Shown: one piece after another, positions 2,670 through 6,113 of the stretch
Numbering within the stretch: the stretch's first letter is position 1
How the letters are laid out: each line of letters starts with the position of its first letter
DNA from: Candidatus Kaiserbacteria bacterium CG10_big_fil_rev_8_21_14_0_10_45_20
GTDB lineage: Bacteria > Patescibacteriota > Minisyncoccia > Phycocordibacterales > Phycocordibacteraceae
DNA: 32,105 nucleotides
Direction of reading: 5' to 3'
NCBI GenBank assembly: GCA_002773335.1
Contig: PFBH01000016.1
Location: 12,503 to 44,607, forward strand
Position numbers and translations under genes: made by a program
The notes under the pieces: generated by a model
What the model saw: only the letters and a program-made list of their open reading frames with translations
The model's database searches: none
What the model was told of the DNA's origin: nothing

Positions 2670-2744
2670 ACCTCTATGGTATCAAAATCCGCTATTGTTT
2701 AACACTAAAAGCAAAGTGTCCAAAAATGAGGTACTATTTTGAGA

Positions 2745-4406
2745 ATGGACATACAAGATGATGCAACACGAGACCTGGAAGACCTTAAGAGAAGAGAGGA
2801 AGAAGAGCTCGCCTCTTTACTGTCTCAAAAGTACGGCATTGAGTACATTGACCTTACGCGTGTTTCTATAAACACTGACGCGCTCCGTTTAGTATCCGAA
2901 GAGAAGGCACGCGGAGCCGAGTGCGCCGCGTTTGATGTTGTTGGGAAACGCGTGTCCTTGGCAGTACGCTCACCACAACACCCAAAACTTCCGTCGGTAC
3001 TGAAAGACTTAGAAGAAAATCACTATGAAGTAAGGCAGTTTATGGTTTCGCGCGCATCTCTCTCTCGCGCGTGGGAACGGTACGCAGACCTTTCTTTTGC
3101 TATTGAGTCTAAATCTGGCGTTTTTGATATTTCGTCTGAAGAGCTCAAAAAAACTATTGAGGAGTTTGATGGTGTGCCGAGCATTGCTAAGGCAATAGAA
3201 GAGGTGTCGTTATTAAAAAAGGCTTTTCGCATATCCCGCATTCTTGAAGTTGTTCTCGGTGGGGCGCTCTCAATAAACGCATCTGATGTTCATATTGAAC
3301 CAGAAGAAGAGAGCGTCCGTTTGCGATTTCGTTTAGACGGTGTTCTTCAAGATGTTGCCACTTTTGATGCAGAAACGCATACGCTCCTTTTGTCACGTCT
3401 TAAACTGCTATCAGGTCTTCTGTTAAATATCCACGACCGCTCACAAGATGGCCGTTTTTCTATTGAACTTGGCGAGACTGAAATAGAGATAAGAACATCA
3501 GTAATCCCGGGGACATACGGAGAGAGCGTTGTGATGCGTGTACTCAACCCAGAGGCAATCGCGGTGCCATTCTCTGAATTGGGGATGGAGCCAATGCTTG
3601 AAAAATTAGTGAAAGAAGAAATCACAAAACCAAACGGAATGCTTTTAACAACAGGACCTACCGGATCAGGAAAGACAACAACGCTCTACGCGTGTTTGCG
3701 AGAGATACACTCTCCCCAAATCAAAATTATTACCATTGAAGACCCTGTTGAATACCACCTGAAAGGCGTTGTACAAACACAAGTTGAAAAAAACTACACA
3801 TTTATCGGTGCTCTACGATCAGCCTTACGGCAAGACCCAGACGTTATTATGATTGGAGAGATCAGAGAAGCAGACGTTGCTCGCACCGCGATTGACGCTG
3901 CACTTACCGGACACTTTGTGTTCTCAACACTACACACCAACAACGCGGCTGGGGCCTTCCCCCGCCTTGCTGATTTTGATATTGATCTAAAGGTTGTCGG
4001 CTCTGCAGTATCCGTAGTATTAGCGCAACGCCTTGTGAGAAAGCTGTGCCCGAAATGTAGAAAAGAAACTCCTCTAGAGGGAGAAAAAAAGACGCTTATA
4101 GAAAAGGTTGTTGCAGGAATAAGAAATAAAGACGTTATCCCCCAAAATTCTTCAGTTGTCTTTGAACCGGTTGGTTGCGAGGCGTGCAATATGACGGGCT
4201 ACAAAGGTCGGATTGGTGTATTTGAAGGAATTGTCGTAGATAGTGAAATTGACGCATTTGTGCGCAACAACCCGTCTGAAAATGATATTCAAGAAATTCA
4301 AAAGAAACGGGACATTCTCACAATGCCCGAGGACGGGGTGGTAAAAATCCTCAACGGCATCACCTCTCTTGAAGAGGTGGAGCGAGTTATTGATATTGCT
4401 CCATAA
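2745..4406 (+). CDS. GspE/PilB-family type II secretion / type IV pilus assembly ATPase
   Basis: GPTGSGKTTTLYACL (Walker A), IKIITIEDPVEYHL, RSALRQDPDVIMIGEIREADVARTAIDAALTGHFVFSTLHTN, CxxC pairs (CPKC, CEAC). ATG at 2745 preferred over TTG at 2739. Confidence 0.93.
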   Translation: MDIQDDATRDLEDLKRREEEELASLLSQKYGIEYIDLTRVSINTDALRLVSEEKARGAECAAFDVVGKRVSLAVRSPQHPKLPSVLKDLEENHYEVRQFMVSRASLSRAWERYADLSFAIESKSGVFDISSEELKKTIEEFDGVPSIAKAIEEVSLLKKAFRISRILEVVLGGALSINASDVHIEPEEESVRLRFRLDGVLQDVATFDAETHTLLLSRLKLLSGLLLNIHDRSQDGRFSIELGETEIEIRTSVIPGTYGESVVMRVLNPEAIAVPFSELGMEPMLEKLVKEEITKPNGMLLTTGPTGSGKTTTLYACLREIHSPQIKIITIEDPVEYHLKGVVQTQVEKNYTFIGALRSALRQDPDVIMIGEIREADVARTAIDAALTGHFVFSTLHTNNAAGAFPRLADFDIDLKVVGSAVSVVLAQRLVRKLCPKCRKETPLEGEKKTLIEKVVAGIRNKDVIPQNSSVVFEPVGCEACNMTGYKGRIGVFEGIVVDSEIDAFVRNNPSENDIQEIQKKRDILTMPEDGVVKILNGITSLEEVERVIDIAP

Positions 4407-4415
4407 TAAAATAAA

Positions 4416-4587
4416 AAACCGAACCACTCTAAGCAACACTCTGCTAGGAGAAAGTGGAACATGGATGAGGATAGAACCAGTAACCCTCAAACAAGTTGAG
4501 GAACCAGTCCGTCCTTACCACGAAGCCACAGCGTTGCTTAGATGGGTTCGGTTTCTTTCAAAAGAACAGCCCTTTTCAGGGCTTTTG
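4416..4587 (+). ncRNA. Candidate structured intergenic RNA, class unknown: long closing stem followed by a terminator-like hairpin
   Basis: 5' arm AAACCGAACCACTCTAAGCAAC (4416-4437) pairs with GTTGCTTAGATGGGTTCGGTTT (4533-4554): about 20 bp with one 2x2 mismatch. An internal hairpin CCTCAA-ACAAG-TTGAGG lies in between. AGCCC-TTTTCA-GGGCTTTT follows. No convincing CDS. Confidence 0.55.
4568..4587 (+). terminator. Rho-independent-like hairpin
   Basis: AGCCCTTTTCAGGGCTTTTG; short stem plus weak T-tract downstream of the RNA candidate. Confidence 0.5.
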
Positions 4588-4665
4588 CTATACTAGCATA
4601 CTGATATCTTTTTGTCAAGCCCTTATCTTGAACCATGGAGTATGAGAATAAAGCATAGTTCAAAA

Positions 4666-4700
4666 CCTAACGACTAATGGCTAAGTACTAATAACTGGCA
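4666..4700. repeat. Heptad array (ACTAANN orientation, i.e. TTAGTNN on the minus strand), about 5 units
   Basis: CCTAACG ACTAATG GCTAAGT ACTAATA ACTGGCA, strict 7-bp period, immediately upstream of ruvB. Confidence 0.8.
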
Positions 4701-4721: not shown

Positions 4722-5726
4722 ATGGATACCGCACCAAACGAACCTACCGAAGAGAGAGTTGCTCCAGAGGCGTCTCTTGACCAAACGCTTCGCCCAAGCA
4801 CGTGGGAAGAGTACGTCGGACAAGAAAACCTCAAAGAAAATTTGCGCGTTCTCATTACCGCGGCAAAAGAGCGGTCACACGCTCCTGAGCACACACTTCT
4901 GTATGGCTCTCCTGGTTTGGGAAAGACAACGCTCGCCCACCTTATAGCAAAAGAGCTTGGCACTAACCTAAAATCAACAGCAGGTCCTGTTATTGAACGA
5001 GTCGGTGACCTTGCCGCCATTCTTACCAACCTGACCCCTGGTGACATTCTTTTTATTGACGAAATCCACCGCCTCAATAAAACCATTGAGGAAGTTCTTT
5101 ACCCTGCTATGGAAGCAGGGAAGCTCGATATTATCATTGGAAAGGGTCCGTCGGCGCGCACTATAGAGCTTGGGCTTCCTCCTTTTACGCTTATTGGAGC
5201 CACAACACGGATCGCGCTCATCTCGTCACCTCTTCGTTCACGTTTCTCTGGTGGTGTTTTTCAGTTAGAATTTTACTCTGAAGAAGATATTGAGAAAATT
5301 TTACAACGATCTGCTTCTATTTTGGGTATACAGCTCGAACCCGAAGCAGCAAAAGAGGTTGCGAAACGGTCACGAAGAACCCCTCGTACAGCAAATTATC
5401 TGCTCAAGCGATGTCGCGACGTTGCTCAGTTAGACCGAACCCCGGTCACTGCTGAGGTTGCCCAAAAAGCACTCTCAATGATTGGCGTTGACGAGGCCGG
5501 TTTAACTTCTTCTGACCGACGACTCCTTGAAACACTGGTTGATAAATTTAGGGGGGGTCCTATTGGACTTAAAACTCTCGCGGCTGCAACCATGGAGGAA
5601 GAAGAAACAATAGAGGGCGTGTATGAACCGTACCTAATGCAAGAAGGTTTTTTGGAACGCACTCCACGCGGACGCGTTGCAACCCCACGAGCGTTTGAGC
5701 ATCTGAAAAAGAGTATTCGGTATTGA
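4722..5726 (+). CDS. ruvB: Holliday junction branch migration DNA helicase RuvB
   Basis: LRPSTWEEYVGQENLKENLRVLI, LLYGSPGLGKTTLAHLIA, ILFIDEIHRL, LIGATTRIALISSPLRSRF. Confidence 0.97.
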   Translation: MDTAPNEPTEERVAPEASLDQTLRPSTWEEYVGQENLKENLRVLITAAKERSHAPEHTLLYGSPGLGKTTLAHLIAKELGTNLKSTAGPVIERVGDLAAILTNLTPGDILFIDEIHRLNKTIEEVLYPAMEAGKLDIIIGKGPSARTIELGLPPFTLIGATTRIALISSPLRSRFSGGVFQLEFYSEEDIEKILQRSASILGIQLEPEAAKEVAKRSRRTPRTANYLLKRCRDVAQLDRTPVTAEVAQKALSMIGVDEAGLTSSDRRLLETLVDKFRGGPIGLKTLAAATMEEEETIEGVYEPYLMQEGFLERTPRGRVATPRAFEHLKKSIRY

Positions 5727-5748: not shown

Positions 5749-6113
5749 ATGGTTATTCATCATTTCAGCCAGTTGGTTGCGTGGCAGAGGGCGCACGTCT
5801 TGGTGCTACTTGTATACAAACATACCCGCACACTCCCTGATGGAGAGAAGTTTGGTTTAACTAGTCAAATGAGGCGCGCTTCTGTTTCAGAGACATCTAA
5901 CATTGCGGAAGGGTTTGGAAGGAGGACTGCTACTGATAAGAATAGTTTTTATACAATGGCAAAACATCGCTTTCGGAGTTAGAAAACCAGTTATACATTG
6001 CTCGAGACCTTGGATATTTGGAGAAAAAACTACATACCGAAATTCAAAGTATGGTTGAGGAAATTCACCGCCTGATAGGTGGCCTAATGAAATCCTCAAC
6101 AACAAAATCATAG
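5749..6113 (+). pseudogene. Four-helix-bundle protein (23S rRNA intervening-sequence / S23 family), frameshifted
   Basis: Frame 1: MVIHHFSQLVAWQRAHVLVLLVYKHTRTLPDGEKFGLTSQMRRASVSETSNIAEGFGRRTATDKNSFYTMAK. It continues in another frame as SLSELENQLYIARDLGYLEKKLHTEIQSMVEEIHRLIGGLMKSSTTKS*. A 1-nt loss around GCAAAACATCG breaks the ORF. Confidence 0.88.

What the first reader, a model, noticed from the sequence alone, without database searches (positions are those of the whole stretch)
4416..4587. Unassigned structured RNA candidate between gspE and ruvB
A roughly 20-bp closing stem with only a 2x2 internal mismatch spans 139 nt. It encloses a 6-bp hairpin (CCTCAA/TTGAGG) and short possible helices (GTGG/CCAC, GGATG/CGTCC), followed by a terminator-like hairpin. 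The rod-like layout with internal bulges is reminiscent of 6S RNA, but I cannot match conserved 6S sequence or any named riboswitch or ribozyme.
Basis: partly seen in the sequence, partly recalled or inferred. Interest (0 to 1): 0.6.

Follow-up and report, generated by a model that had tools for sequence, protein, structure and literature searches.

The report
New conserved 6S-like bacterial RNA
Between two genes of a tiny-genome bacterium lies a small RNA gene, made from the strand opposite to the one first read, that nearly every sampled member of its bacterial order carries at the same spot; its folded shape suggests that it works like 6S RNA, a switch that blocks RNA polymerase, though no known RNA family matches it.

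Summary
The structure is real, but the RNA is made from the minus strand and extends beyond the given coordinates: promoter TTGACA-17-TAGTAT with an extended TGC (4618-4590), predicted start ~4583, 5' leader hairpin, then a rod (4557-4413) whose closing stem runs straight into a U-run at the pilB (gspE) stop codon. Homologs in the genus seeded a covariance model that finds the RNA in 255 of 297 genomes (149 of 165 genera) of the order. It sits between convergent pilB and divergent ruvB in 86 of 87 long loci; the exception is cut by a contig end. Covariation is massive (32 of 41 pairs with changes on both sides; score 0.494 vs 0.194 shuffled). No Rfam 15 family matches. By elimination it is not tmRNA or RNase P RNA (found elsewhere in the genome) nor SRP RNA (the Ffh RNA-binding domain is missing from all 41 genomes searched). 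Its layout (long closing stem, variable 5' bubble, covarying arm, conserved 3'-bubble hairpin) has the topology of Bacillus-type 6S-1 RNA and of RF00013 6S RNAs in other classes of the phylum, an RNA undetected in this order. Best reading: a sequence-divergent 6S-type RNA-polymerase-binding RNA. Binding is untested and no expression data were available.

The parts
4613..4618 (-). -35 element TTGACA of the RNA's promoter
   Evidence: exact TTGACA is the best-fitting hexamer in 74 of 97 homologs
4590..4598 (-). extended -10 element TGC-TAGTAT, spacer 17
   Evidence: TG of the extended -10 in 78 of 97 homologs, spacer 16 or 17 in 91 of 97
4568..4583 (-). predicted transcription start (~4583) and 5' leader hairpin (AGCCCT/AGGGCT); a small hairpin recurs here in the genus, and leader length varies elsewhere in the order
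   Evidence: the start site is inferred from the -10
4531..4557 (-). closing stem, 5' strand, with the sequence-conserved segment CTAAGCAAC (CTCTAAGCAA in most of the order)
   Evidence: covariation: 23 of 26 pairs of this helix with changes on both sides, 93.7% of cells paired
4413..4439 (-). closing stem, 3' strand (GTTGCTTAGAG...GGTTCGG...)
4402..4418 (-). U-run TTTTTTATTTTATT after the closing stem: intrinsic terminator, overlapping the pilB stop codon
   Evidence: T-rich run after the stem in all seven genus members first aligned
4516..4530 (-). 5' side between closing stem and core (5'-bubble region); holds GTGG of the middle helix (4529-4526)
   Evidence: the middle helix is supported by the own-versus-swapped flank test
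4504..4515 (-). conserved core, 5' strand AGGA-C-GGACTGG
4481..4503 (-). apical hairpin, variable in sequence and length
4468..4480 (-). conserved core, 3' strand CTGGTTC-TA-TCCT
4440..4457 (-). CCAC of the middle helix (4457-4454) and 3'-bubble region; in most of the order this region forms a hairpin CUUUU...AAAAG next to the closing stem, small in this species
   Evidence: hairpin z mean -2.0, 77% of 86 sequences below -1
2739..4406 (+). flanking gene pilB/gspE-type ATPase, convergent with the RNA
4722..5726 (+). flanking gene ruvB, divergent from the RNA

Best explanation
A stand-alone, trans-acting small RNA gene on the minus strand, about 175 nt, transcribed from its own extended -10 sigma70-type promoter and ended by the closing stem plus U-run. 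It is a lineage-specific family, near-universal in one order of tiny-genome bacteria (almost certainly Patescibacteria/CPR). Most likely it does the job of 6S RNA: the closing stem and arm mimic melted promoter DNA, the 5' bubble acts as the pseudo-template, RNA polymerase holoenzyme is sequestered, and synthesis of a short product RNA beginning near GUUGCUUAGAG, copied from the conserved CUCUAAGCAAC strand, would open the closing stem and release the enzyme. Shown here: gene, strand, conservation, structure, context, absence of RF00013 hits. Inferred: transcription itself, RNA-polymerase binding, product-RNA synthesis.
For: Structure and covariation. Promoter recurs in homologs. Near-universal in the order: 255 of 297 genomes, 149 of 165 genera, 0 hits outside the class in a phylum sample of 380 genomes. 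Fixed context pilB><RNA<>ruvB, 86 of 87 long loci. Topology closing stem / 5' bubble / arm / 3'-bubble hairpin / closing stem, which is the topology folded for RF00013 hits of other classes of the phylum and described for B. subtilis 6S-1, where the 3'-bubble hairpin already forms in the free RNA (PMC8876501). Elimination: tmRNA and RNase P RNA lie elsewhere; SRP is excluded because the Ffh RNA-binding domain is absent from all 41 genomes searched while 14 of 14 controls ring and both SRP RNA models find nothing. RF00013 6S occurs in other classes of the phylum but not in the members of this order searched. The first base before the conserved UUGCUUAGAG strand is a purine in 73 of 82 sequences, compatible with a product-RNA start.
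Against: RF00013 does not match any of 13 family members tested, even at E<=10, and the family model does not match RF00013 loci (best E 0.71 at 9.7 bits). The closing-stem sequence and the AGGAC...CUAUCCU core are more conserved in sequence than I would expect of 6S RNAs (own knowledge). Many members have a 5'-bubble hairpin, so the template strand is not plainly open. RF00013 loci of the phylum whose neighbours I read lie beside an M50-type protease, not ruvB, so synteny does not show orthology. The -10-like UAUUAA in the 3' bubble is off by one or two bases and is explained equally well by the hairpin. No expression or binding data.
Confidence: 0.6

Rival explanations
1. A new housekeeping or regulatory ncRNA class unrelated to 6S: it binds some other protein or RNP through the sequence-conserved core and closing stem.
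For: Strong sequence conservation of CUCUAAGCAA, AGGAC and CUAUCCU, no similarity to RF00013, conserved U-G/G-U wobbles in the core.
Against: The architecture follows the 6S layout element by element, and 6S is the universal-type RNA left unassigned in this order.
Confidence: 0.28
2. A cis-acting element: antisense or transcription-interference regulator of ruvB and/or terminator between pilB and ruvB.
For: Absolute synteny with ruvB and pilB; in most genus members the -35 element overlaps the ruvB start codon (ATGTCAAG read on the other strand); the closing stem overlaps the pilB end.
Against: A terminator or antisense unit does not need a covarying arm, core and 3' hairpin; one genome carries two tandem copies with compensated closing stems.
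Confidence: 0.07
3. A divergent form of another known housekeeping RNA (SRP, tmRNA, RNase P).
For: Near-universal, similar size to small SRP RNAs.
Against: tmRNA and RNase P RNA are found elsewhere in the genome; the Ffh M domain and SRP RNA are undetected; the apical loop, the most conserved part of SRP RNA, is the least conserved part here.
Confidence: 0.02
4. A plus-strand RNA or riboswitch-like leader of ruvB.
For: The stem also folds on the plus strand, and the model rings on both strands because of it.
Against: Own locus scores 117.1 bits on minus and 37.1 on plus; promoter and U-run are on minus in the homologs.
Confidence: 0.03

Closest known systems
6S-1 RNA of Bacillus subtilis and Firmicutes-type 6S (Rfam RF00013 clan of structures; PMC8876501)
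   Same: Closing stem, 5' bubble, apical arm with bulges, 3'-bubble hairpin already present in the free RNA, predicted length about 175 nt, own promoter, single or few copies (tandem copies in some genomes).
   Different: No detectable sequence or covariance-model similarity; much stronger sequence conservation of closing stem and core; an optional 5'-bubble hairpin; own synteny (pilB/ruvB).
RF00013 6S RNAs of other classes of the same phylum (L153-L162)
   Same: Same topology, size 143-161 nt against 140-182 nt.
   Different: Different sequence and, in the loci whose neighbours were read, different context (beside an M50-type protease); not detected in this order.
Ms1 RNA of Actinobacteria (PMC9130861)
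   Same: Lineage-specific RNA found where canonical 6S is not detected, defined largely by conserved synteny.
   Different: Ms1 binds core RNA polymerase without the primary sigma factor; no sequence comparison was run here.

Membership tests
6S RNA (RF00013, SsrS) | Match to the Rfam covariance model at gathering score | tested here: not met
6S RNA (RF00013, SsrS) | Rod of about 150-200 nt: long closing stem, internal bubble, apical arm | tested here: met
6S RNA (RF00013, SsrS) | 3'-bubble hairpin next to the closing stem (6S-1 type) | tested here: met
   mean z -2.0 over 86 sequences; small in the window's own species
6S RNA (RF00013, SsrS) | Open 5' bubble that can serve as template | tested here: inconclusive
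   28% of 89 members show a significantly structured 5' region, the rest do not; in the genus the unpaired 5' side is short
6S RNA (RF00013, SsrS) | -10-like element in the 3' bubble and purine start of a product RNA | tested here: inconclusive
   UAUUAAAAG and a purine before UUGCUUAGAG, but explained equally by the hairpin
6S RNA (RF00013, SsrS) | Binding of RNA polymerase holoenzyme and product-RNA synthesis | not testable with these tools
   needs biochemistry or RNA-seq
6S RNA (RF00013, SsrS) | Own sigma70-type promoter and stand-alone transcript | tested here: met
   (promoter by sequence only; transcription not observed)
SRP RNA (RF00169, RF01854) | Model match and presence of the partner protein Ffh | tested here: not met
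tmRNA (RF00023) | Model match at this locus | tested here: not met
   the genome's tmRNA is at L247:15289-15679
RNase P RNA (RF00010) | Model match at this locus | tested here: not met
   the genome's RNase P RNA candidate is on contig C21
Ms1 RNA | Binding of core RNA polymerase; Actinobacterial synteny (HAD hydrolase/oxidoreductase) | not testable with these tools
   binding not testable; context here is pilB/ruvB, not that of Ms1 (PMC9130861)

The most novel reading that the evidence does not exclude
The RNA is a categorically new, near-universal RNA of a large order of CPR-type bacteria, with its own protein partner, not a 6S analogue.
Probability: 0.28. Interest if true: 0.8.

Novelty: new variant of a known kind. 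Interest (0 to 1): 0.68.

Why it matters
It is an RNA family absent from Rfam 15 yet present in about 86% of the sampled genomes of a whole order of ultra-small bacteria, at one fixed locus. If it is a 6S RNA, it shows that this lineage kept RNA-based control of RNA polymerase with almost complete sequence turnover, and it gives a test case for what 6S function really requires. If it is not, it is a new housekeeping-type RNA in organisms for which hardly any functional RNA biology is known. The literature library held no paper with both '6S RNA' and candidate phyla radiation, Parcubacteria or Saccharibacteria, and one unrelated paper for Patescibacteria.

Tried and rejected
Rfam at gathering and at E<=10 on the window and on 13 homologous loci: nothing at the RNA. 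A pattern scan of named genomes used a spacer one base too long and returned only chance matches in unrelated phyla; it is not used, so no organism names are available. tmRNA was missed by ARAGORN but found by Rfam, so the ARAGORN negative was dropped. Regular-expression searches for Ffh/FtsY and SRP RNA found nothing; the Pfam search is the evidence used. Wehner et al. 2014 (PMC4615782), the main 6S survey, is not held. A weak second match in G348 (L152) has neither neighbour gene and is taken as chance.

Full report
Observation. The stem-loop described is present. Folding 4416-4587 gives -65.7 kcal/mol, z -6.3 against dinucleotide shuffles, 0 of 200 shuffles as good. Rfam 15 has no match at gathering score in the whole window nor any sensible match at E<=10 over 4350-4700.

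Strand and gene. A promoter scan found TTGACA-17-TAGTAT with TG before the -10 on the minus strand, 4618-4590. Seven genus members aligned all have, on the RNA strand, a TTGACA promoter with an extended -10, a small leader hairpin, the rod, and a T-rich run directly after the closing stem. Predicted lengths from start to U-run are 164-181 nt. In most of them the -35 box overlaps the ruvB start codon (ATGTCAAG). Over 97 homologs of the order, the best-fitting -35 is exactly TTGACA in 74, TG precedes the -10 in 78, and the spacer is 16 or 17 in 91 (the best fit was chosen within 110 nt, which favours good scores somewhat). The family model scores the window's locus 117.1 bits on minus and 37.1 on plus; the plus-strand score is the echo of a palindromic stem. 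The RNA therefore runs from about 4583 to about 4408 on the minus strand, convergent with pilB and divergent from ruvB.

Structure. In the genus, 14 of 46 predicted pairs have compensatory changes. In 31 diverse members (A5), 92.4% of cells form standard pairs (shuffled mean 76.2%), 32 of 41 pairs show changes on both sides (21.3 +/- 1.9), and the covariation score is 0.494 (0.194 +/- 0.011, 0 of 500; 0.156 or less in slid controls). The middle helix between the core and the bubble, which that structure did not include, was tested by swapping flanks between sequences: own flanks pair at -7.1 kcal/mol on average, swapped flanks at -4.4 +/- 0.2, 0 of 200 as low. The 3'-bubble hairpin is significant (mean z -2.0; 77% of 86 below -1), while the 5' region is structured in only 28% of 89. 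The layout is: closing stem of about 25 bp with the sequence-conserved segment CUCUAAGCAA/UUGCUUAGAG; 5' bubble with an optional hairpin; middle helix; core AGGA-C-GUUCUGG / CUGGAGC-UA-UCCU with two conserved wobble pairs; variable apical hairpin; 3'-bubble hairpin CUUUU...AAAAG; closing stem.

Distribution and context. Model R2 hits 255 of 297 genomes of the order, 149 of 165 genera. In a phylum-wide sample of 380 genomes, all 18 genomes with hits were in the order except two class members; none lay outside the class, which also serves as a specificity control. Although the model knows nothing of neighbours, 86 of 87 real long loci carry pilB and ruvB homologs on either side of the RNA; the one exception is cut by a contig end. 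Most genomes have one copy, once the opposite-strand echo is set aside; G143 carries two tandem copies whose closing stems differ by compensated changes.

What it is not. Rfam over the rest of the genome finds tRNAs, rRNAs, tmRNA and a LOOT RNA, but no SRP RNA and no 6S. RNase P RNA is on contig C21 (below its gathering score but E 9e-29). SRP RNA models RF00169 and RF01854 find nothing in 79 and 41 genomes of the order, and the Ffh M domain PF02978, which binds SRP RNA, is absent from all 41 genomes searched while ringing in 14 of 14 controls. An SRP RNA is therefore not expected. RF00013 6S finds nothing in the own genome or in the members of this order and class listed in the phylum sample, but hits 19 of 240 genomes in other classes of the phylum, 3 over the cut-off. 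In the loci whose neighbours I read it lies beside an M50-type protease (protein recognised by eye).

How it may work. The folded RF00013 RNAs of sister classes have the same element order as the new family: closing stem, 5' bubble, arm, 3'-bubble hairpin, closing stem. In B. subtilis 6S-1, a 3'-bubble hairpin already forms in the free RNA, the 5' bubble and the adjoining strand of the stem are the template for short product RNAs, and a -35-like region lies in the apical arm (PMC8876501). By analogy, the product RNA here would start near the strand complementary to CUCUAAGCAAC, i.e. G/AUUGCUUAGAG; the base before UUGCUUAGAG is a purine in 73 of 82. This would make the strongly conserved closing-stem segment the initially transcribed sequence. 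This last paragraph is inference.

Membership. By covariance model it is not a member of RF00013. In architecture, size, stand-alone promoter and elimination of other universal RNAs it works like a 6S RNA candidate. I put 0.6 on a 6S-type function, about 0.28 on an unrelated new RNA class, and more than 0.95 on its being a real conserved ncRNA gene on the minus strand.

Noticed in passing
41 genomes of the order (G000-G040): The Ffh M domain (PF02978) and, in 79 and 41 genomes respectively, SRP RNA (RF00169, RF01854) are undetected, so the SRP pathway seems to be missing from this whole lineage.
   Followed up: partly
L153-L162: RF00013 6S RNAs occur in other classes of the phylum (19 of 240 genomes, 3 over cut-off), in some loci beside an M50-type protease; most score below the Rfam cut-off.
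   Followed up: partly
L250:4209-4331 (G000:C3:103209-103331): LOOT RNA (RF03000), a known RNA of unknown function as far as I recall, in the same genome.
   Followed up: no
L120:1501-1682 and 1701-1882 (G143): Two tandem copies of the new RNA with nearly identical cores but different, compensated closing stems and 5' hairpins.
   Followed up: partly
L242:11344-14684 (G000:C19): The 23S rRNA gene spans 3341 bases for a 2925-position model, so it probably holds an insertion.
   Followed up: no
window 4659-4696: A 38-base stretch upstream of ruvB recurs at 85% identity on contig C3 (L008), in a spacer of about 100 bases between promoter and ruvB that most other genus members lack.
   Followed up: no
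window 5749-5982: A 77-aa ORF that looks like a four-helix-bundle protein of the 23S rRNA intervening-sequence type (recognised by eye, not tested).
   Followed up: no
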